Below, piece after piece: positions 2,885-17,388 of a stretch of DNA of 20,010 nucleotides. Positions within the stretch are counted from its first letter, which is position 1; every line of letters starts with the position of its first letter. Both the position numbers and the translations under genes were made by a program. Origin of the DNA: a virus; IMG/VR virus record IMGVR_UViG_3300025112_000256, positions 1 through 20,010 of that record. One strand, written 5' to 3'. The notes below the pieces were generated by a model that worked only from the letters and a program-made list of their open reading frames with translations, made no database searches and was not told the DNA's origin.

Positions 2885-5173
2885 CTATCTATTATAGAAA
2901 GGCAGGTACTGTTTCTTGCCTTCCGGACTATTAACAACATTTAATAAATTCTTCATGTCGCCTTCAAGTCTTATATCTGCGCTTAAATTCATTTCTTTTA
3001 GTGCTTTAATTAGTGGCTCCGTAATATTTTGCCGCATAAGGGTTGCTTGATCAGAAGAGCCGGCAGATGAGTTTCCAAATAAATTGCTCCCTTGCGCTAG
3101 GGGCCCAGTTGGAGTGCCCACGAGTAACCTAGCATCGTCCGAACTGTTGACTCGAATCCCTTGGCGGCCGCTGATGGGTTTTCCATCTTTTAATATGTCT
3201 ATCCGGGCGTCGTTGTACCGCCCGCCGTAAAGGTCGTCTGCTTGAGAAGAGCCATACATGTATCCGCCTAGGCCGCCCAGGCCTGCGCCAATCAGCGTCC
3301 CCATGGGCCCGAACATCGAGCCCGCCATGGCGCCGCCCGCGGCGCCGCTGGCAGCGCCTCCCCATTTACTGAGGGATGCGGCTTCCTCAGTGCGGCCCGA
3401 CGCATGAAGAGCCTGTGCTCCCTTAGACGTCGCATACATGCCGGCACCAGCGACTGCTAGGCCGAGCGCGCCGCGCATAGCCATCCCCATAGCGCTCATC
3501 TTTGCGCCATTAGCCACGGCAGCATTCCCCATCAGATTCATCCTAGATATAATACCAACAACCTGGAATGCCATCAGGGCGCCCTTGACCGCGAGAATCG
3601 CCCAACCGATCTGCTTAATCTTATCGATCCAAGGGGTAGCGTAACCAGGCTTACCGTCGCAACCGAAGATCTTGCAGAAAAGATCCTTAAGGTCGTGGCC
3701 CTGGTGAACCCAGTCAGAGAATCTATCTATTAACTTAACTATTTTGTCAGCAAAATCTTGATTCTTGATAATCAAGCTGTTAAATGCGTCTTTAAGCTTT
3801 TGAAGAACGTCTCTCGCTTGGCCCGCCTTTCGAGCTAATTGCTCTTGCCTCAAAAGGCGCGCCTCTTCGAACGGCGTTAACTCATTAAGAGATTTTCTTA
3901 AAGTGTCCACATCTGTGCCAATGGCCGAAGCAAACGCTTTTTGTTCATACTTATTAAGATCGTTGAAGACTAGACCTGATGCTTTAAGAGACTCCTGTAC
4001 CATTTCTAGACGTTCCGACTCAGAAGCGTTCAGCATATCAATAGAGTTAAGATAGGGGCCCCCCATTAACGCATTGAGTTTCCCAACAGCCTTACCTGCT
4101 CCTTCGAATGTGTCAAACTGTTCCCCAAATACTCCGAGTAATTGATCAACAGATAGTCCGGTGCTCTTTGATTGAGCTTCTAATTCCTTAAAGACGGACA
4201 ACATTTCTTTTCCGTAAAAGGCAAGTTTAGGGGCCGCGGCTGCAAAGTCCTTTGAAATCTCACTAATGGGTTTCCCAACTGCGGTGGCGATTGAGTCAAA
4301 TTCTCTTAGTAATCGCTCACTTTGTTTCGTGCTAAATCCCAAAGATTTGGTCATCGTATTCAAGTTTGCGGTAGATTCGTCCATCGAAACATTGAATTTA
4401 CCAAGAATGGCGACAGTGGCAGCGAGTCGTTCTTTTGTGGTATCAGATTCGCCAGTAAAATCTCTAAAGTGAGAGAAAAGGGCTTGGGTGGCTTTGCCGG
4501 CATCTTCTGCATTAATCCCATAGGTCAAATATGCGGAGCCGGCATTGGAGATAACATTCTGGTACTCATACCCTGCTCCTGTTGCCGCGCGGAATGATGC
4601 GCCTGCCTTATCAACCGAGAGGGCAAAGTTAACCGAGTTGCTGATGACCTTCATCAGGAGGGCGCCCAGGAGTTTGGTGGGCTTTAGAACGTTCTTCATT
4701 TCCTTAAAGAAGCCCTTGAGTTCTGCCCTACTCGTCGGCACAAACTTCATGAATTGTTCAAACTGACCATTTATTCCCAAAATAGACTCTGTCAAAAGGC
4801 CCGCCTTGCGCGCGCCGTGCCCCATTTCCCGATTATGTTTTTGCAGCGCGGTCGTGGCTTCCCTGTTTGCTTTGGTTCCTTTTTTGATAGCTTGAACCTT
4901 CTTCTTATATGCGGCGGTGCCTTCATTCTCTTCGGCGAGCGACTCTTTCATCGTCTTGATATACTGCCTGTGGTGATCGAGCTTGGCTTTGTTTATTTCC
5001 TCCTGGGTCTCGGCGACGGCTATATTATCGCGCGTGCGGCGTGCGCGGGTCTTCTCCTGCTCCGCGTCCTCTTTGTCTCGATCCTCCGGGCTCATCTTGC
5101 CGCGGCGGAGATCGTCGCTGCCCTTGAGGGCGGCAAGAATCTTTTCTAATATTGCTTGTTCTTCAGCTGCCAA
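2885..5173 (-). CDS. Tail tape measure protein
   Basis: A 762-residue protein with tape measure architecture. It has a charged, helical N-terminus (residues 1-115), long helical stretches, and a hydrophobic Gly/Ala-rich segment at about 522-644 containing AVAGAGMYATSKGAQAL and GTLIGAGLGGLGGYMYG. A short polar tail follows, ending in QYLPFYNR. Tape measures line the tube, set tail length and later exit toward the cell. At roughly 0.15 nm per residue this length would suit a tail of about 110 nm (inference); T4 gp29 has 590 residues. The start is TTG at 5173: an in-frame TAG lies 9 nt upstream and the first in-frame ATG is residue 27. AAGGG stands 10 nt before the TTG. The gene lies between a small gene and a tube-cap-like gene, the usual place for a tape measure. 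Confidence 0.85.
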   Translation of the reverse strand: MAAEEQAILEKILAALKGSDDLRRGKMSPEDRDKEDAEQEKTRARRTRDNIAVAETQEEINKAKLDHHRQYIKTMKESLAEENEGTAAYKKKVQAIKKGTKANREATTALQKHNREMGHGARKAGLLTESILGINGQFEQFMKFVPTSRAELKGFFKEMKNVLKPTKLLGALLMKVISNSVNFALSVDKAGASFRAATGAGYEYQNVISNAGSAYLTYGINAEDAGKATQALFSHFRDFTGESDTTKERLAATVAILGKFNVSMDESTANLNTMTKSLGFSTKQSERLLREFDSIATAVGKPISEISKDFAAAAPKLAFYGKEMLSVFKELEAQSKSTGLSVDQLLGVFGEQFDTFEGAGKAVGKLNALMGGPYLNSIDMLNASESERLEMVQESLKASGLVFNDLNKYEQKAFASAIGTDVDTLRKSLNELTPFEEARLLRQEQLARKAGQARDVLQKLKDAFNSLIIKNQDFADKIVKLIDRFSDWVHQGHDLKDLFCKIFGCDGKPGYATPWIDKIKQIGWAILAVKGALMAFQVVGIISRMNLMGNAAVANGAKMSAMGMAMRGALGLAVAGAGMYATSKGAQALHASGRTEEAASLSKWGGAASGAAGGAMAGSMFGPMGTLIGAGLGGLGGYMYGSSQADDLYGGRYNDARIDILKDGKPISGRQGIRVNSSDDARLLVGTPTGPLAQGSNLFGNSSAGSSDQATLMRQNITEPLIKALKEMNLSADIRLEGDMKNLLNVVNSPEGKKQYLPFYNR

Positions 5174-5186
5174 CTTCTTCTAGCCC

Positions 5187-5504
5187 TTAATTTTTAAATG
5201 GCCAGCGGAGGCCCGTTTCGGATTCGAAGCCTCGGATGGCGCCTTCGAGGTCATGCTTGCTCATCATAGTGCGACTATCATTAAGTCCGTGATTCATATA
5301 ACTATCCATATAACGCTTTTCGCCTTGAAGGGTTTTCATAAACGATTCAATTTCGGACGAGGTACCTCGCACATTAAAAGGCAAATGGATGCCGGCGTGG
5401 TAAAGGCCTATCAGCAAACTCCCAACGTCGGCACCAAATTGGGTATAGAGTCGCTCATTAAGCTGCTTATTGGATAGGTCGATTACAGTCGTTTCTCTTT
5501 TCAT
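5187..5504 (-). CDS. Small phage protein upstream of the tape measure
   Basis: A 105-residue soluble protein beginning MKRETTVIDLSNKQLNERLY and ending FESETGLRWPFKN. The ATG at 5504 is chosen because AAGGAG lies about 9 nt upstream; an upstream TTG (5537) would put the start inside the terminator-proximal sequence. The compact C-terminal pattern (GLNDSRT, then a basic helix, then F..TGLRWPFK) looks like that of small hypothetical proteins in other phage tail clusters, but I cannot name a family. It sits alone between a terminator (5544-5563) and the tape measure, 13 nt before the tape measure start. By position it may be a tail-assembly factor or a minor baseplate component; this is inference from neighbours. 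Confidence 0.8.
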   Translation of the reverse strand: MKRETTVIDLSNKQLNERLYTQFGADVGSLLIGLYHAGIHLPFNVRGTSSEIESFMKTLQGEKRYMDSYMNHGLNDSRTMMSKHDLEGAIRGFESETGLRWPFKN

Positions 5505-5521
5505 GATAGGACACTCCTTTA

Positions 5522-5529
5522 TAACTAGT
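5522..5529 (-). promoter_or_regulatory. Degenerate copy of the ACTATTTA motif
   Basis: The minus strand reads ACTAGTTA, one base from ACTATTTA. It follows the terminator at 5544-5563 and precedes the small gene starting at 5504. It is the weakest member of the set and closest to a start codon (about 18 nt). Confidence 0.25.
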
Positions 5530-5530
5530 T

Positions 5531-5563
5531 TTCTCAAAGAAAAAGCGCGCCCGAAGGCGCGCT
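5531..5563 (-). terminator. Rho-independent terminator after the gp26-like locus
   Basis: Read on the minus strand, AGCGCGCC and GGCGCGCT form an 8-bp GC-rich stem closed by a TTCG tetraloop (5544-5563), followed by TTTTCTTTG. It lies just after the stop of the frameshift extension (5573) and before the small gene that starts at 5504. Confidence 0.85.
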
Positions 5564-5572
5564 GGGGTGATT

Positions 5573-5743
5573 TTACTCTGCAGCCTGAGCCTTCTTATCT
5601 TCAAAGTGTTTAATTAATCTGGTGAGGAACCATCTTCTCAGCCCCGTAGGAAGACTATAGGCCTCAGAGAAGGACCAGTTACCGTGCTGTTTTAAAATGA
5701 AAAGTTCTTCATACAGAGCTTCTTGATGCTCAGAGGTCAGGCC
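5573..5743 (-). CDS. Out-of-frame extension of the gp26-like protein (probable frameshift product)
   Basis: This 56-codon segment reads GLTSEHQEALYEELFILKQ, then HGNWSFSEAYSLPTGLRRWF, and ends DKKAQAAE. It has the look of a real short helical protein, with regular charge and aromatic spacing. It lies in the +1 (equally -2) frame relative to the gp26-like gene, whose own stop is at 5730-5732. Extended upstream, its frame runs under the 3' end of that gene, where the only start candidates (TTG 5824, ATG 5815) lack a ribosome site. Initiation there would also translate the out-of-frame shadow of a conserved Cys motif. The simplest reading is expression as a C-terminal extension by ribosomal slippage on T7 (5744-5750), giving a fusion of about 330 residues. 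In T4-like phages a separate small hub-assembly factor (gp51) might be the counterpart, but that match is uncertain. Confidence 0.6.
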   Translation of the reverse strand, partial: GLTSEHQEALYEELFILKQHGNWSFSEAYSLPTGLRRWFLTRLIKHFEDKKAQAAE

Positions 5744-6566
5744 AAAAAAAGTGGAGAGTAATCGGCACCTCCAGCCGATCGTTATAGTCGCAAAATTCAC
5801 ACTCAAAATCAGCATAAAGGCCAATATTAGGCATCACCGATTCATAAATAGATCTTACTTTTCGCGAGAATGCCACCGGCATCGCGGCCACAACTTGCTG
5901 AATGGCCGAGGGTTCGCGCATATCATTGACCGCGACAATAATACTTTCCAACATTGTTGTAATGTTTCCAACATCCTTCTTTAGCTTTCTTCGGTTTTCC
6001 AAGATCTTGGTGATTTTTGTCTCATCTTGGCCTTTTAATAGCCTTATTTCTAAATTCAAATCATACTCTTTATTATAAATTAAAAAATTTCCATTTTCAA
6101 GAAGGCTGACGTCTTCAGGAATTTCAGATTCTTTTATTTCTCTCGTATTCAAAGAAAAATCTTTCTCATTTTGCTTACCGCATTCCGAACAATTAATACT
6201 TGTTGTATATATGTCACCAAAACCGGTCTGGCGCGCTGCGATGAGGACCGCATTCTTATCACCGATCAACAAAGTGTCAGGATGAACATTTTTATCTACT
6301 ATAACCGACTGTAAAAGTCGGTTTAAGGCCATACCGCTCTTTAATAAGGCCTCAGACGTCAAAATGTCCTCTTCTTTTGCGGTCATGTGCCTGATCTCCA
6401 ACACTTCATTATCGTGAAGAGGGTGATCTTCTCCATAAAATAACCCCTTACTTGGAAGTTCAACAAATTCTGTGGGGGTTACAAAAGAAAAAAGATTATT
6501 ATCCGGAGCGGGGCCCGGAGGGGGCATTTCTGGGGCTTTAGTTCTATTGGAATTTCTCTTGCTCAC
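5730..6566 (-). CDS. Baseplate hub / tail assembly protein, gp26-like (T4_baseplate family)
   Basis: A 278-residue protein matching the T4 gp26 family. It has FVTPTEFVELPSKGLFYG (residues 28-45), HPL (48-50), EIRHMTAKEEDILTSEALL (57-75) and GDKNAVLIAARQTGFGDIY (102-120). Two Cys pairs, CSEC (126-129) and CEFC (256-259), could bind one metal ion as a zinc ribbon. T4 gp26 (208 residues) is needed for baseplate hub assembly. Start is GTG 6566, with GAAGG a few bases upstream. The zero-frame product ends HFFWPDL just after the T7 run at 5744-5750; a second frame continues as a 56-residue extension. Sitting between tail tube and tape measure, it occupies the place of tail assembly chaperones in other phages. 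Confidence 0.8.
   Translation of the reverse strand: MSKRNSNRTKAPEMPPPGPAPDNNLFSFVTPTEFVELPSKGLFYGEDHPLHDNEVLEIRHMTAKEEDILTSEALLKSGMALNRLLQSVIVDKNVHPDTLLIGDKNAVLIAARQTGFGDIYTTSINCSECGKQNEKDFSLNTREIKESEIPEDVSLLENGNFLIYNKEYDLNLEIRLLKGQDETKITKILENRRKLKKDVGNITTMLESIIVAVNDMREPSAIQQVVAAMPVAFSRKVRSIYESVMPNIGLYADFECEFCDYNDRLEVPITLHFFWPDL
5744..5772 (-). other. Candidate programmed frameshift site
   Basis: On the minus strand a run of seven T (5750-5744) is read CAC TTT TTT TGG in the gp26-like frame, four codons before its stop. A slip of +1 or -2 on this run enters the frame of the 56-codon extension. A perfect Shine-Dalgarno-like GGAGGT (5772-5767) lies inside the coding sequence, 16 nt before the T run, and no start codon in the extension frame follows it at normal distance. 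It may therefore act as a frameshift stimulator. I saw no obvious downstream pseudoknot, though I cannot compute folding. Confidence 0.5.
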
Positions 6567-6596: not shown

Positions 6597-7172
6597 TTAG
6601 GTAATGTTGGCTATCGCTCTGGCGCCGGGACCTACTGCATACGAAGCCCAATCATACCTCATAGTGACTTCAATATTAAGGATATCTTCAGCATCATAAC
6701 TTAAATCACCAAATGTGGCTGCTGTGATAAAGGCATTGTTGAGAGACCACGTTCCCACCGTATCGCCATTGCCGGCAAGTTCTTCGATTTGTACAATACC
6801 GAGCGTATCAATTGCTAGCGCCTTATTTGGTGTTGATGGGGGGCGCTCACCACGGAAAATCAGCTCCTGCACATCGGGAGTTAAATATCCCATATTAACC
6901 AGTGCATCATACAACAGAGCATTCCCATCGGGAGCAATGGAGTTAACAATTGTGGCCTGAATGGTGTTCCATTCTACGATACCAGGATAATAGTATGTGT
7001 TACCTAAAAACTTATGCGGGGTCTCAGAGACCGTATAAGACGGCTTCGTCACGGCGCGCGCCAAATACTCAGTATAAGTAAATTCATCTGCTGCACTAGC
7101 CAGTTCGGGGAGCCTCAATAAAAATCTATGTGATCTCTTCGGCTCTGACGTCGCTAAATTCCAAAATGCCAT
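6597..7172 (-). CDS. Tail tube protein (gp19-like)
   Basis: A 191-residue protein, close to the usual size of T4-type tube proteins (T4 gp19, 163). It starts MAFWNLATSEPKRSHRFLLR and has the central motif FLGNTYYYPGIVEWNTIQAT (residues about 54-73), where the tube protein typically describes its beta-strand contribution to the ring. It ends with a strand pattern (LNIEVTMRYDWASY). Stacked hexamers of this protein form the inner tube that DNA passes through. ATG 7172 has CAGGAG about 8 nt upstream. It lies directly downstream of the sheath gene, the standard sheath-tube pair, and is separated from it by a hairpin and promoter-like motif. Confidence 0.9.
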   Translation of the reverse strand: MAFWNLATSEPKRSHRFLLRLPELASAADEFTYTEYLARAVTKPSYTVSETPHKFLGNTYYYPGIVEWNTIQATIVNSIAPDGNALLYDALVNMGYLTPDVQELIFRGERPPSTPNKALAIDTLGIVQIEELAGNGDTVGTWSLNNAFITAATFGDLSYDAEDILNIEVTMRYDWASYAVGPGARAIANIT

Positions 7173-7236: not shown

Positions 7237-10077
7237 TTAATCAACGAACGCTGCTCCTGTTCTTGTAATATTAAAGTCAATCGCAATAAATTCGATTGCC
7301 CGAGTTGGTTTCAAGAAAATCTTGGCATACAGGATATTTCTATCAATCAAGTCCGGGGTGGTGGTGGTTTCGTCAAGGATCACCTTATAATCCGACAGAC
7401 CAAAGTTTGTTTTTACTTCGGCCAAGAAGGGATTGACTCGCGATAGGAATCTCGCCCAAGTTGTCTTATTATTTGGATCGAAAAGAATGGTTGCGGCCAT
7501 TTGTGAAATGCGTTTCTTTACAAAAATCATCAAACGTCGCACGTTGATGCGATCCAAAGCAGAAGGGGTGACCTGAAGAGTCTTTTGACCGAAGATTACA
7601 ATGCCCTCTGCGGGGAACTTCGCAATCGGGTTAATATTGGCGCTATAGAGATCATCTCTGTCCTTTCGACGCAGTTGGTGTGCGACGTCGATAACAGGAA
7701 TGCCTGCTGCACCCTCTGTGAGTCCGCCGCGGTTAAACCCAGCCGGCGCAAACCAGACTTGCGTCTTTCGCTGTGAGCTAGAGAAAGTGCCGATAGCAGC
7801 AACAGAAGGGGGCAACCAAACAAATGAGCCGTTGAGGGTATCGCGCGCGCGGACCCATGGATAGAACGTACAACCATAAGAGGTGTTTAGACCTCGGTCG
7901 CGTAGGTTTGCAATTGCCTGTCGAATAGTACTCTGAGTATTATTTCTGGCAGAAGCGAGGCCCTCTTCGCGCGGCGTGAAGCCATCAGGAAGGTCAATAA
8001 CTGCCAAAGCGTCTGCTCGATCCTCACATGTCCTGATTAAATGAGTAGTGAGGCTTGCGTTTGTAAGAGCAGGTATGGAAGCCAAGTTCATCTGTGCAGC
8101 GTCGGGGTCGGCAATAGTATCAATTGCTCGCCGGATGCTATAAAACACATAATTGCTACTATCTGTGGGGCTGTCGGCAAGATTTCTGTTAGCAAATGGG
8201 TCGAGTTCCTTAACATCCAGGCCGTCAAAGCCGCCATACATTGGAACTGTGAATCTATCATAGCCAGCATTAAGAACACCGGTTACGGGCCCATTAGCAT
8301 AAGTAAGGGACCCCTCTCCGGCAGTTGTATCATTATGCGAGCCACTTTCCCACACACCTGATCCAGATATATCATCGAGTGTGAAGTCCATGGAGAGTTC
8401 GGTATTTAAAGTTGTGCTCGTGGAAAACGTGTTGCCCACAAGGCCGCCGCGGGGGCGCAGAAGGTCAATGGTCGAACGCTCAAAGACGGTGCTCCCCGCA
8501 GCCTCAGCCGTCTGAAGCCCGAAGTATGCGTCAGTTGGGTTGTTAAGGTTCCCATCAGAAGCATTAACTCTGAATTCGGGGGCTGGGTAAAGTACATTAA
8601 CTGCGTAATTAATGGTGCTACCGGCGCCTCCCGAAATGGCAAACAAAGATCCGGAGGTGATCACCCCCGAGCCTTGTACGGGCAGCCCGATCACTTTCGA
8701 ACCAGAAAGCCACTGGCCGGCGTCACCGGAACCAGTGGTTAAATTATCTTCATCATTATATTTAACAATGCCTCGGAATCCGAAAGGAAGAAGGCGCGCG
8801 TCTGTAATCCCAGCGTCAACATCGGCATTCATCTGAATTCGAATATAATCAGAACGATTCGCATAGTTGCCAACTTCAATGTTTCTGCGCTCAGTCTCGT
8901 CCCAACTAAGATATTTGTCGCCAACTTTACGTGCAACATAGTTTAAAGAGTCAGGGTTGAGATCGCAATTATTGAATTGTTCTATGATGCGGACGACATT
9001 ATCTGTGTCACTCAAGTGGCGAACAACCACAGAAAACTGACCATACTCGGTACTATCATTAGTTGAAACCTTGATATCTTGAATTGAAACCTTAAGATTT
9101 TTGCTTGTCCAGTCGCCGGCTTCGCCCAGTGCAACAAACTTAAACAAGTTTTGAGGTGCATCCGTAGGGCTTAAGCGACAAGAAACCACCTGAGGGGTCT
9201 CGGCGGAGTTTAGATTCCCATCAAAATCGTAACCTTTTCCGGTTGTACTGCCTGTCGTCCGTATGGGAACAATCGCTGCCCAAGTATTAGTTTGAGTATT
9301 GTCAATTTGAGCTGCAAGGTGACGATCGAATGTTTCGCCCAAGAAATAATTGACCACGGTGTTGCTAACCGAGCTATTGGTCTTTGCTGGGTTTGTGTTA
9401 AAAACTTTTCGAATATATTTCGAATCATTCTTGCTAAAGTTGAAAGTACTCGTAAGGGTGCTGCTACCATCGTACTTTTTGATGAGCATCTTGTACTCAA
9501 ACTTGCCACCTACATTCTGAACAATTGGTCCCGAGCCGGTAACTGGGGCGCCGGCTTCCACCGTGTTCGCGGTGCTGCCGCTCTTGGCGATGGCTCCGCT
9601 TAATTCAAAAGAAACACCGGCATCAGTAGAATAGAAAACAGCGGCGAGAGCGCCAGTGAGTTCCATCTCTGTTCCAGACCCAGTCTCAAAAACAATAAGC
9701 CCATAAGCATTGGTGGCCTGCCAGCCGGCTATACCACCACCGGCAGCATCCGAACGATCCGCGCCAAGGAGGCGGACATAAGTGAGGGGAGAACTGTTAC
9801 GAAGATAAGCCTGGGCGCCATACATTCCATAAGTGGCGGCAGTCGCATTGGCGCCTTGGCGCCAGACGTCGTCGCCCATATTGCCCGGGCTCGGTGAGCC
9901 GAAGATATCAACAAATTCCGCAAATGAATTAACCGTGGTAGGTCGTAAAGCCGGGCCTTTCGGGGCGCGCCCAAACAGCACCGGGCCGATACCAGCAGGG
10001 GAAGCAGGTACTTGGGAGTTATCAATCTCATTGATGAAAACTCCAGGGGATACAAATCTATAATTTTTTACTGACAT
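7237..10077 (-). CDS. Contractile tail sheath protein (gp18-like)
   Basis: A 946-residue sheath protein. The N-terminus FVSPGVFINEIDNSQVP, followed by GPVLFGRAPKGPALRP, is the classic sheath opening. From about residue 688 to the end lies the conserved sheath core: FTPREEGLASARN, YGCTFYPWVRARDTLNGSF, WLPPSVAAIGTF, APAGFNRGGL, NPIAKFPAEGIVIFGQKTL, INVRRLMIFVKKRI and the C-terminal strand IEFIAIDFNITRTG, which links neighbouring subunits. T4 gp18 has 659 residues, so the roughly 600-residue middle is enlarged. It looks beta-rich and Ser/Thr/Gly/Asn-rich, as expected for surface-exposed inserted domains. Start ATG 10077 has AGGAGA 9 nt upstream. Its 5' region carries two copies of the ACTATTTA motif, so it may head its own transcript together with the tube gene. 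Confidence 0.95.
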   Translation of the reverse strand: MSVKNYRFVSPGVFINEIDNSQVPASPAGIGPVLFGRAPKGPALRPTTVNSFAEFVDIFGSPSPGNMGDDVWRQGANATAATYGMYGAQAYLRNSSPLTYVRLLGADRSDAAGGGIAGWQATNAYGLIVFETGSGTEMELTGALAAVFYSTDAGVSFELSGAIAKSGSTANTVEAGAPVTGSGPIVQNVGGKFEYKMLIKKYDGSSTLTSTFNFSKNDSKYIRKVFNTNPAKTNSSVSNTVVNYFLGETFDRHLAAQIDNTQTNTWAAIVPIRTTGSTTGKGYDFDGNLNSAETPQVVSCRLSPTDAPQNLFKFVALGEAGDWTSKNLKVSIQDIKVSTNDSTEYGQFSVVVRHLSDTDNVVRIIEQFNNCDLNPDSLNYVARKVGDKYLSWDETERRNIEVGNYANRSDYIRIQMNADVDAGITDARLLPFGFRGIVKYNDEDNLTTGSGDAGQWLSGSKVIGLPVQGSGVITSGSLFAISGGAGSTINYAVNVLYPAPEFRVNASDGNLNNPTDAYFGLQTAEAAGSTVFERSTIDLLRPRGGLVGNTFSTSTTLNTELSMDFTLDDISGSGVWESGSHNDTTAGEGSLTYANGPVTGVLNAGYDRFTVPMYGGFDGLDVKELDPFANRNLADSPTDSSNYVFYSIRRAIDTIADPDAAQMNLASIPALTNASLTTHLIRTCEDRADALAVIDLPDGFTPREEGLASARNNTQSTIRQAIANLRDRGLNTSYGCTFYPWVRARDTLNGSFVWLPPSVAAIGTFSSSQRKTQVWFAPAGFNRGGLTEGAAGIPVIDVAHQLRRKDRDDLYSANINPIAKFPAEGIVIFGQKTLQVTPSALDRINVRRLMIFVKKRISQMAATILFDPNNKTTWARFLSRVNPFLAEVKTNFGLSDYKVILDETTTTPDLIDRNILYAKIFLKPTRAIEFIAIDFNITRTGAAFVD

Positions 10078-15488: not shown

Positions 15489-16448
15489 TTAATCATGCCT
15501 CGGTCTTCTCAAAATACGCATTTTGGTAAAAGTGGTTGTAAAATTTAAGCTGGCCTGCGGTTGATACTGGCGTGCTGTCATAGCTATTTCCATAATTCCA
15601 GGATAAAGGCTCCATTCGGGTGCACCGGCCTGGACCCCGGGCGCGAAGCCGCCCGGGTTGTGCCAGCCATTAGACCAATTACCTTCAGGATCCCAAGGCG
15701 ACGCCACCTTCTCCATGTACTCCCAACTTTTCGAACCTTGCTCGTTGCCCATAGATCTAAACTCTGTCGTGGTACCGGGGGTTGGAAATGTTGTAATGGC
15801 TGCACCGTTCGAGCCCGTAGTAGCGGCCGAAGAATTCCAGTTAGATGCCGGCGTCGCAATAATTTCAAAAAATGATGCCCTATTCGTGGTGCCAACGGCG
15901 TGGCCTGCGGTCCCGGGATCGCCACTTCCATCCCCGCCGGCTCTAGTATAAAAATTGCCATTGGTGCCGGCGGCCGTAGTTTGATACCACTGCATTCCGT
16001 ACCAATTGGCTGTGGTGGTGGCGGAGCCGCCAGTCCCATAGCCGTTGTCTTTCACAATAAGCCCATTAACCGCATATGCGCTGGAGTTTCCCCCCGTAAA
16101 GGAAGAAGTCAGAAGGGTTTGAATGCATATTTCGTCGGCCGCATCAAAATCTGGTACCAAGTCCTCGATCTTAGTTGAAATCAAAAGACCCTCCATGTAG
16201 CCCAGGTACCAATTAGCGCTAGCGGCTGTGGCGGCGGCAATATATATTTGAAAACCTGTATCCTCGATAAATTTTACATATGAGCTGCCGCCCCCAAAAG
16301 CAGTCAAATTACGACATGTCCATGTAACACCCCCGAAGGCGCGCGTTCCATCATTTGTAAATGTATGATCAGTCGCTTTGGTAAAATCAATTTCCTTAAC
16401 CACTTCCCAGTCTGGCGTTATGGCAACACTAGAGACTCCTTTAATCAC
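15489..16448 (-). CDS. Putative virion surface protein, paralogue 2
   Basis: A 319-residue protein with no family I can name. Start GTG 16448 is chosen because GGAGGA lies 6 nt upstream and it makes the length match its upstream paralogue (315); the longer reading from 16520 would overlap that gene by 80 nt. The GTG overlaps the paralogue's TAA (CGTGATTAA), so translation is probably coupled. Shared blocks in the same order are DWEVVKEIDFT, FGGVTWTCRNL, a Gly-rich Y/F strand, DLVPDFDAADEICIQ, FFEIIATP, PEWSLYP, and the C-terminus KMRILRRPRHD. The Gly/Ser/Thr/Trp-rich, beta-strand-like composition suggests a jelly-roll or lectin-like surface domain (weak inference). With the fibre-like gene just upstream, a role in capsid decoration or host binding is plausible. 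Confidence 0.85.
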   Translation of the reverse strand: MIKGVSSVAITPDWEVVKEIDFTKATDHTFTNDGTRAFGGVTWTCRNLTAFGGGSSYVKFIEDTGFQIYIAAATAASANWYLGYMEGLLISTKIEDLVPDFDAADEICIQTLLTSSFTGGNSSAYAVNGLIVKDNGYGTGGSATTTANWYGMQWYQTTAAGTNGNFYTRAGGDGSGDPGTAGHAVGTTNRASFFEIIATPASNWNSSAATTGSNGAAITTFPTPGTTTEFRSMGNEQGSKSWEYMEKVASPWDPEGNWSNGWHNPGGFAPGVQAGAPEWSLYPGIMEIAMTARQYQPQASLNFTTTFTKMRILRRPRHD

Positions 16449-17388
16449 GGCGTCTCCTCCGCAATACACGTAGCTTTTTAAAAACTGTTGTAGCTCCCAT
16501 CCCGAAGGGCGCGTCCGCACCCGTAGCGGTCGCTGCCATGGCTATCTTCATATTGCTCGGACGCAATTCCCACGCTGGCGCGCTAGCCAGGGTACCAGGA
16601 TTATTGGCTACGCCCGAAGAGACATCTTCCTGTTGGAGACCATATGATTTTTCTACCACCGAAAGTGGTCTTGGAAAAGACGTTATCTCGGAGCCGCCAG
16701 ATCCCGTCTGGGCTTGGGATCCTATAAATCCGCCACCAGGAGTTGCAACAAGTTCGTAGAATGTTGGCCACACATTGATTGCATAAGCCGATTGATCGTA
16801 GGGGCGGCCGGTGTCGGCGGTAGCCGAACCACCGCATCGGGTGGTGCGATACATGATAGTCGCGTCCGCTTTTTCGACGGAGAAATTCGCGAACCACTCG
16901 GGGCCAGAGGCGGCTCCCGCCTGTCCAGCCGTTATAAACATACGAGCACAGGGAACACATGTCGCGTCGACGACGTCGGGGAAATTATTAGTTGAACTGG
17001 TCACGAGAAACTGAAAACATAGCGTGTCCATCACATCAAAATCAGTAACTATGTCAGAAACGCTAGCCGATAGAAGCGGCGCTGTAACATTTGTGTGATA
17101 AATGTTCATAGTGCCGTTGCCTGTTGATCCAGTAACATGACAAACAAGCCCCGTACCCGGAACAAACTGTATATACGAGTCGGCGCCGCCGTAATCTGAC
17201 AGATTCTCGGCTGTCCAGTTGACTCCCCCAAAGGCTTGAGGTGTGCCGTCTACAAATGCGGTACCACTAGCTTGTGTAAAATCAAATTCTTTAACAACTG
17301 CCCAGTCGCTGACAACCTCAACCCCCGAAAGAGTTTTCATATCGTAAATGTCGATCCCTGAAATTTTAAATCCCGTAGTCGTAGACAT
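16441..17388 (-). CDS. Putative virion surface protein, paralogue 1
   Basis: A 315-residue protein starting MSTTTGFKISGIDIYDMKTL. ATG 17388 is 1 nt after the stop of the fibre-like gene (TCATAAAATG), so the two are translationally coupled. It shares block order and its end with the next gene: DWAVVKEFDFT, FGGVNWTAENL, DIVTDFDVMDTLCFQ, FYELVATPGGG, PAWELRP and KKLRVLRRRRRD. Similarity outside those blocks is low, so the duplication is old. There are four Cys residues, including CVPC and TTRCGG. The sequence looks beta-rich with no coiled coil or membrane segment. I see no known domain; a decoration or receptor-binding role is inferred from composition and from the adjacent fibre-like gene. Confidence 0.85.
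   Translation of the reverse strand: MSTTTGFKISGIDIYDMKTLSGVEVVSDWAVVKEFDFTQASGTAFVDGTPQAFGGVNWTAENLSDYGGADSYIQFVPGTGLVCHVTGSTGNGTMNIYHTNVTAPLLSASVSDIVTDFDVMDTLCFQFLVTSSTNNFPDVVDATCVPCARMFITAGQAGAASGPEWFANFSVEKADATIMYRTTRCGGSATADTGRPYDQSAYAINVWPTFYELVATPGGGFIGSQAQTGSGGSEITSFPRPLSVVEKSYGLQQEDVSSGVANNPGTLASAPAWELRPSNMKIAMAATATGADAPFGMGATTVFKKLRVLRRRRRD

What the first reader, a model, noticed from the sequence alone, without database searches (positions are those of the whole stretch)
5573..6566. gp26-family protein apparently extended by programmed ribosomal frameshifting
Seen: the gp26-like frame ends four codons after a T7 run, and a protein-like 56-codon frame continues in the +1/-2 frame with no usable start. 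A GGAGGT sits inside the coding sequence 16 nt before the run. Known: phages of lambda and Mu type make a short and a long tail assembly chaperone by slippage between tube and tape measure genes. Inference: the T4-like gp26 (with a possible gp51-like extension) is made here the same way, linking T4 hub-assembly factors to the tail chaperone theme.
Basis: partly seen in the sequence, partly recalled or inferred. Interest (0 to 1): 0.75.

Follow-up and report, generated by a model that had tools for sequence, protein, structure and literature searches.

The report
Frameshifted tail assembly chaperone, T4-like phage
In this marine phage, one gene makes a short and a long version of the protein that helps build the tail: now and then the ribosome slips at a fixed run of T bases. 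The same arrangement recurs in hundreds of related phages and was described for T4-like phages in 2022.

Summary
The gp26-like ORF (5730-6566, -) ends four codons after TTTTTTTGG, and a 56-codon frame continues in the +1/-2 register to 5573.

It is not chance. Every complete close relative read keeps the frame relation and the slip site. The extension evolves as protein and in most relatives has no start codon. The slip codons are among the only fixed synonymous codons in the gene. Variant sites (TTC TTT TGG; TTT CTT TGG) favour +1 slippage of tRNA-Phe on UUU-Y over -2.

The gene lies between tube and tape measure. T4 gp26 and gp51 are both in its family, and gp51 carries the extension domain as a C-terminal tail. 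So this is the short/long tail assembly chaperone (TAC-N/TAC-NC).

That identification is not new: Vladimirov et al. 2022 named the T4-like TAC genes (title and one citing sentence seen, not the text). The GGAGGT is not conserved.

Possibly new leads: cyanophages carry a full -1 cassette (GGAGG, 10 nt, TTTTTTC, stem). Contractile injection systems carry a -1 cassette (SD-like, 10 nt, G5) joining a zinc-ribbon protein to DUF6760, which resembles the phage P2 E' tail. I found no report of either.

The parts
5730..6566 (-). gp26-like protein (PF12322 T4_baseplate, phrog_150), 278 aa, GTG start: short form, TAC-N (G-like)
   Evidence: Pfam E 2.7e-11, 44 bits over cut-off 24.5; PHROG 2.7e-12
5742..5750 (-). 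slip site TTT TTT TGG; +1 shift of tRNA-Phe on UUU-U
   Evidence: conserved in 51/53 distinct close relatives, other 2 TTC TTT TGG; codons fixed
5573..5743 (-). 56-codon extension in the +1 frame (TAC-C / T domain) giving the 330-aa long form TAC-NC (G-T-like)
   Evidence: conserved protein in all complete relatives; AF2 helices 5-20, 26-30, 34-56, pLDDT 80
5767..5772 (-). GGAGGT inside coding sequence, 16 nt upstream of the T run; probably not functional
   Evidence: spacing not conserved among relatives
6597..7172 (-). tail tube protein, directly upstream
   Evidence: phrog_4542 E 2.4e-18
2885..5173 (-). tape measure protein, downstream
   Evidence: phrog_167 E 3.4e-17
5187..5537 (-). 116-aa ORF of unknown role between extension and tape measure
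   Evidence: no convincing family
7237..10077 (-). tail sheath (context)
   Evidence: phrog_23 E 4e-70

Best explanation
This is the tail assembly chaperone locus of a T4-like contractile phage. Most ribosomes stop after WPDL and make the 278-aa short form (TAC-N, gp26-like). A minority slip at TTT TTT TGG: the peptidyl-tRNA-Phe on UUU moves one base forward to UUU (elsewhere UUC), GGC is read next, and a 330-aa long form ends in a three-helix domain (TAC-C, gp51-tail-like). By analogy with lambda G/GT, the short form coats the tape measure protein and the long form recruits tube subunits; both leave before the tail is finished. Shown here: frames, conservation, coding selection, location, family membership. 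Inferred: that slippage occurs, its direction, its rate, and the chaperone action.
For: Frame relation and slip site in all complete relatives read. Slip-site codons are the only fixed synonymous codons in the gene in the two +1 clades tested: Phe TTT 63/63 and Pro CCT 63/63 in the marine set; Phe TTT, Pro CCT and Asp GAC in the Flavobacterium-like set. Variants TTC TTT TGG (L052, L053, L181-L193), TTT CTT/CTA TGG, TTT CTA (L001), TTC TTT CGT (L006) all keep UUU-Y, which allows +1; clade C, L001 and L006 do not allow -2. Tube upstream, tape measure downstream. gp26 and gp51 of T4 are both PF12322. Extension-type T domain vs pooled cyanophage/T4/Rhizobium/other T domains: hhalign 88%, P 3e-6, 0/200 column shuffles as high. 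Similar helix lengths, 16-5-23 vs 16-6-15. A T4 review lists gp26 and gp51 as hub assembly chaperones and gp51 as absent from the particle.
Against: No protein or ribosome data exist. No downstream RNA structure in the +1 clades (mean z 0.23 and -0.11) and no conserved SD-like element, so the stimulator is unknown. Direct hhalign of the marine T domain alone to T4 gp51 tails fails; homology goes through intermediates. No PDB fold matches gp51 at E below 0.001. L191 and L196 carry the domain as a free ORF with an ATG.
Confidence: 0.86

Rival explanations
1. -2 slippage as in phage Mu: the tRNA moves back two bases on TTTTTTT, adding one extra Phe to the fusion.
For: The frame relation alone cannot tell +1 from -2, and T7 allows re-pairing; Mu uses -2 (review PMC5009743).
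Against: In TTC TTT TGG (L052, L053, clade C), TTT CTA (L001) and TTC TTT CGT (L006) a -2 move puts tRNA-Phe on UCU or ACU, a mismatch; +1 fits every variant.
Confidence: 0.08
2. Transcriptional slippage: RNA polymerase adds or drops bases on the T7 run, so a fraction of mRNAs fuse the frames.
For: T7 run in the window.
Against: Clades with TTTCTTTGG, TTTCTATTC or TTCTTTCGT have no long homopolymer but keep the same frame relation.
Confidence: 0.04
3. The extension is a separate gene started inside or just after gp26 (re-initiation), giving a free T protein.
For: L191, L196 and Cygsa01 have an ATG at or after the stop; cyanophages have one 5 nt after the stop.
Against: 65 of 79 loci have no ATG/GTG/TTG before codon 8; several (L046, L050, L053, L055) have none in the whole frame. 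The slip site would then have no reason to be fixed.
Confidence: 0.05
4. Sequencing error or a decayed gene: one continuous gene broken by an indel.
For: A homopolymer is a common error site.
Against: The same frame relation in many independent contigs and in isolated phages.
Confidence: 0.01

Closest known systems
T4-like TAC genes (Vladimirov, Gautam and Davidson 2022, Virology 566:9-15); T4 gp26/gp51
   Same: Same protein family (PF12322), same T domain, same role proposed. A citing paper says T4-like TAC-N genes have poly-T slippery sequences (PMC12846349).
   Different: That citing paper calls them -1 signals; here the shift is +1 (or -2). T4 itself uses two genes: gp26 and gp51 form one clade in the tree (97/92). 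The 2022 text was not available to me.
Phage P2 gpE / E+E'
   Same: Short and long chaperone by frameshift on a T run between tube and tape measure; E' resembles DUF6760 (hhalign 94%, P 1.5e-7).
   Different: P2 shifts -1; direct similarity of the window extension to E' is not significant (P 0.016).
Phage Mu gp41
   Same: Same position between tube and tape measure; extension in the +1/-2 register.
   Different: Mu is reported to slip -2, on a G run; no significant similarity of its T part to the window's.
Phage lambda gpG/gpGT
   Same: Short/long chaperone logic and position.
   Different: -1 shift on another site; no sequence comparison of the proteins was made here.
DUF6760 (PF20546) genes of contractile injection systems
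   Same: Tube neighbour, zinc-ribbon protein, frameshift into a small domain with a similar motif.
   Different: -1 on a G5 run; homology to phage G weak (64%, P 6e-5) and of T weak (P 0.003).

Membership tests
PF12322 T4_baseplate (gp26/gp51) | score above the Pfam gathering cut-off | tested here: met
   44 vs 24.5 bits; T4 gp26 and gp51 also members
Phage tail assembly chaperone pair (TAC-N/TAC-NC) | lies between tail tube and tape measure genes | tested here: met
   phrog_4542 tube and phrog_167 tape measure
Phage tail assembly chaperone pair (TAC-N/TAC-NC) | two overlapping frames with conserved relation and slip site | tested here: met
Phage tail assembly chaperone pair (TAC-N/TAC-NC) | C-terminal domain related to a proven TAC-C domain | tested here: inconclusive
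   window T to T4/cyanophage T P 3e-6; injection-system T to P2 E' P 1.5e-7; window T to P2 E' direct P 0.016
Phage tail assembly chaperone pair (TAC-N/TAC-NC) | both forms made, in a fixed ratio, absent from the virion, bind tape measure and tube | not testable with these tools
   needs bench work
Known TAC-N fold | structural match to solved TAC structures | tested here: inconclusive
   gp51 model has no PDB match at E<0.001; a missing match is weak evidence
-1 programmed frameshift (lambda/P2 type) | extension in the -1 frame | tested here: not met
   +1/-2 relation
-2 programmed frameshift (Mu type) | re-pairing possible two bases back in all relatives | tested here: not met
   TTC TTT TGG variants give UCU
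+1 programmed frameshift | P-site codon can re-pair one base forward in all relatives of the frame group | tested here: met
   UUU followed by U or C in all +1 loci read

The most novel reading that the evidence does not exclude
Beyond the window: contractile injection systems of bacteria and archaea make a frameshifted tail chaperone too. A zinc-ribbon protein next to the tube gene is joined to DUF6760 by a -1 shift at a G GGG G run with an SD-like element about 10 nt upstream, and DUF6760 is the same T domain as in P2 E' and, more distantly, T4 gp51. The chaperone and its recoding would then be shared by P2-type phages, T4-like phages and injection systems.
Probability: 0.55. Interest if true: 0.72.

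Novelty: new member of a known kind. Interest (0 to 1): 0.46.

Why it matters
The locus is a clean, widespread case of recoding in a tail chaperone, with the shift direction changed (+1 where -1 is reported for other T4-like phages). It shows that one protein pair is kept while the way of making it changes: +1 shift, -1 shift, coupled gene, or gene duplication in T4. It also corrects annotation: the extension is usually missed, called a hypothetical protein, or named a hub assembly catalyst. The same logic points to a recoded chaperone in injection systems, which are being developed for protein delivery.

Tried and rejected
Rejected: GGAGGT as a stimulator (not conserved in place); -2 slippage and transcriptional slippage (variant sites); chance ORF (coding pattern). 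The idea that DUF6760 is the Afp6/Cis6 plug was dropped from the plug's described build (one strand, one helix; PMC8894135) and from memory that Afp6 is another family; the sequences were not compared.

Full report
OBSERVATION. The sequence is as described. The gp26-like ORF on the minus strand ends CAC TTT TTT TGG CCT GAC CTC TGA. The frame one base on continues GGC CTG ACC TCT ... for 56 codons to TAA at 5573. The GGAGGT is at 5772-5767.

FAMILY AND CONTEXT. The first ORF is PF12322 and phrog_150. It lies between a tube protein and a tape measure protein, the place of the tail assembly chaperone in lambda, P2 and Mu (Mu, lambda and P2 gene orders seen). The extension alone has only a weak match to DUF6760 (E 0.037). 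The window is a 20,010-base virus record.

CONSERVATION. Six phage records found by protein search all have a second frame over the stop: four in the +1/-2 register (L001, L002, L003, L006) and two in -1 with canonical heptamers, T TTT TTC (L004) and T TTT TTT (L005). The search of virus contigs gave 580 relatives, of which the best 80 were kept and read. Every complete locus keeps the frame; 51 of 53 distinct sequences read TTTTTTTGGCCT, two read TTCTTTTGGCCT. In the script eight loci were first labelled -1 because a longer chance frame was picked; each also has the +1 extension of 55-56 codons. A second scan from the Flavobacterium phage gave a further clade with TTT TTT TGG, TTT CTT TGG, TTT CTA TGG or TTT CTT TAC, and a third from LR756508 gave TTC TTT TGG, all in the same register except L191 and L196.

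DIRECTION. +1 fits all these sites: UUU can re-pair with UUU or UUC. -2 would put tRNA-Phe on UCU, ACU or GCU in several of them. So +1 is preferred; this is inference from sequence.

NOT A FREE GENE. In 65 of 79 loci no ATG, GTG or TTG precedes codon 8 of the extension. Position counts of differences (1/2/3: 12/4/33 for window vs L012) show selection on the protein. In the codon alignment of the marine set, only two conserved degenerate columns of the whole gene have a fixed codon, Phe TTT and Pro CCT of the site, although 27% of other Phe codons are TTC. Part of the CCT constraint comes from the overlapping frame itself.

T4. T4 gp26 and gp51 are both PF12322; gp51 has about 48 further residues. 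In T4 the two genes are divergent. Cyanophage and Pseudomonas phage records carry the same small domain directly after gp26, annotated as hub assembly catalyst. Profile comparison: cyanophage T domain vs T4 gp51 tail 97%, P 1e-11; vs the Rhizobium/Cygsa01 set 98%; window-type T domains vs all these pooled 88%, P 3e-6, best of 200 column shuffles 21.6 against 35.5. Predicted helices agree in order and roughly in length. In a tree of the N-terminal domain gp26 and gp51 form one clade (97/92), which fits a duplication in that lineage, and the two loci with a free T gene (L191, L196) nest inside a +1 clade; several branches are long and the deep order is unsure.

PRIOR KNOWLEDGE. A 2016 review says the G-T frameshift is conserved in long-tailed phages 'except T4' (PMC5009743). 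A 2025 paper cites Vladimirov, Gautam and Davidson 2022, whose title says that T4-like TAC genes were identified and that a mechanism other than frameshifting is suggested, and says T4-like TAC-N genes have poly-T -1 signals (PMC12846349). From memory, not checked, its abstract reports frameshifting in several T4-like groups and separate genes 26 and 51 in T4. The main identification is therefore not new.

CYANOPHAGES. 56 of 56 distinct loci end in TTTTTTC plus stop with the T domain in -1. GGAGG lies exactly 10 nt upstream in 43 of 52 and GAGG there in 5. A stem starts 8 nt after the heptamer: 91.7% of cells paired, covariation score 0.097 vs 0.038 in shuffles, 0 of 500 as high, and far above slid versions; only one pair covaries. 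An ATG for the T domain lies in that stem, so a free form is also possible.

INJECTION SYSTEMS. A scan of bacterial and archaeal genomes used a DUF6760-like query that I wrote from memory; the result was checked with Pfam: the Nostoc T ORF is PF20546 at 6e-18, with sheath, two tubes and a CIS_tube-LysM neighbour. Neighbours of the other loci were not systematically checked. In 71 distinct loci where the junction could be set, the third base before the slip codon is G in 71, the slip codon is GGG in 66 (26% of Gly codons elsewhere), the next base is G in 71, and an SD-like GGAG/GGAGG/GAGG sits 10-11 nt upstream in 51. The loci were picked partly by a GG motif in the T frame, so part of the G conservation is built in; the run length, the codon and the SD spacing are not. 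The register is -1 in all but one locus shown (output partly cut). Three loci (L343, L357, L359) have GAT TTT TTT instead of the G run. Most T frames lack a start codon between run and motif (63 of 74); counted from the frame's opening, 43 of 71 have none. DUF6760 vs P2 E': 94%, P 1.5e-7, 0 of 100 shuffles. The upstream protein has weak hits to TAC families Phage_TAC_7 (3 of 25 members) and Gp41_Mu (4 of 25), best E about 0.004. No paper on DUF6760 was found, and none on frameshifting with injection systems and this chaperone beyond a reference-list mention; most subscription journals are not in the library.

VERDICT. A new member, with a +1 slip, of the recoded T4-like tail chaperone. The injection-system cassette is the lead most worth following.

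Noticed in passing
L287-L366 (genome contigs), e.g. L329:2639-3168: Contractile injection systems of bacteria and archaea: zinc-ribbon ORF next to the tube gene, G5-G7 run and DUF6760 in the -1 frame, usually without a start codon; SD-like element 10-11 nt upstream.
   Followed up: partly
L207-L286, e.g. L260:2700-2760: Cyanophage gp26/gp51 junction: GGAGG, 10 nt, TTTTTTC, 8 nt, stem-loop that also holds the ATG of gp51.
   Followed up: partly
L343, L357, L359: Injection-system loci of Firmicutes/Fusibacter where the G run is replaced by GAT TTT TTT, a T-type -1 heptamer.
   Followed up: no
L191:3100-3500 and L196:3100-3511: Extension domain as a free ORF with an ATG just after the gp26 stop; nested within a frameshifting clade.
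   Followed up: partly
window 5187-5537 (-): 116-aa ORF between the extension and the tape measure gene; only a weak PHROG hit (0.011).
   Followed up: no
window 15489-16520 and 16441-17388 (-): Two similar-looking adjacent ORFs overlapping by 80 nt; the GTG start listed for the second may be too early.
   Followed up: no
window 7237-10077 (-): Long tail sheath protein (946 aa), with the Pfam sheath domains at the C-terminal end.
   Followed up: no
L098:3001-3746: gp51 of this T4-like contig breaks after 120 codons; the match is one base short, so error or decay.
   Followed up: no
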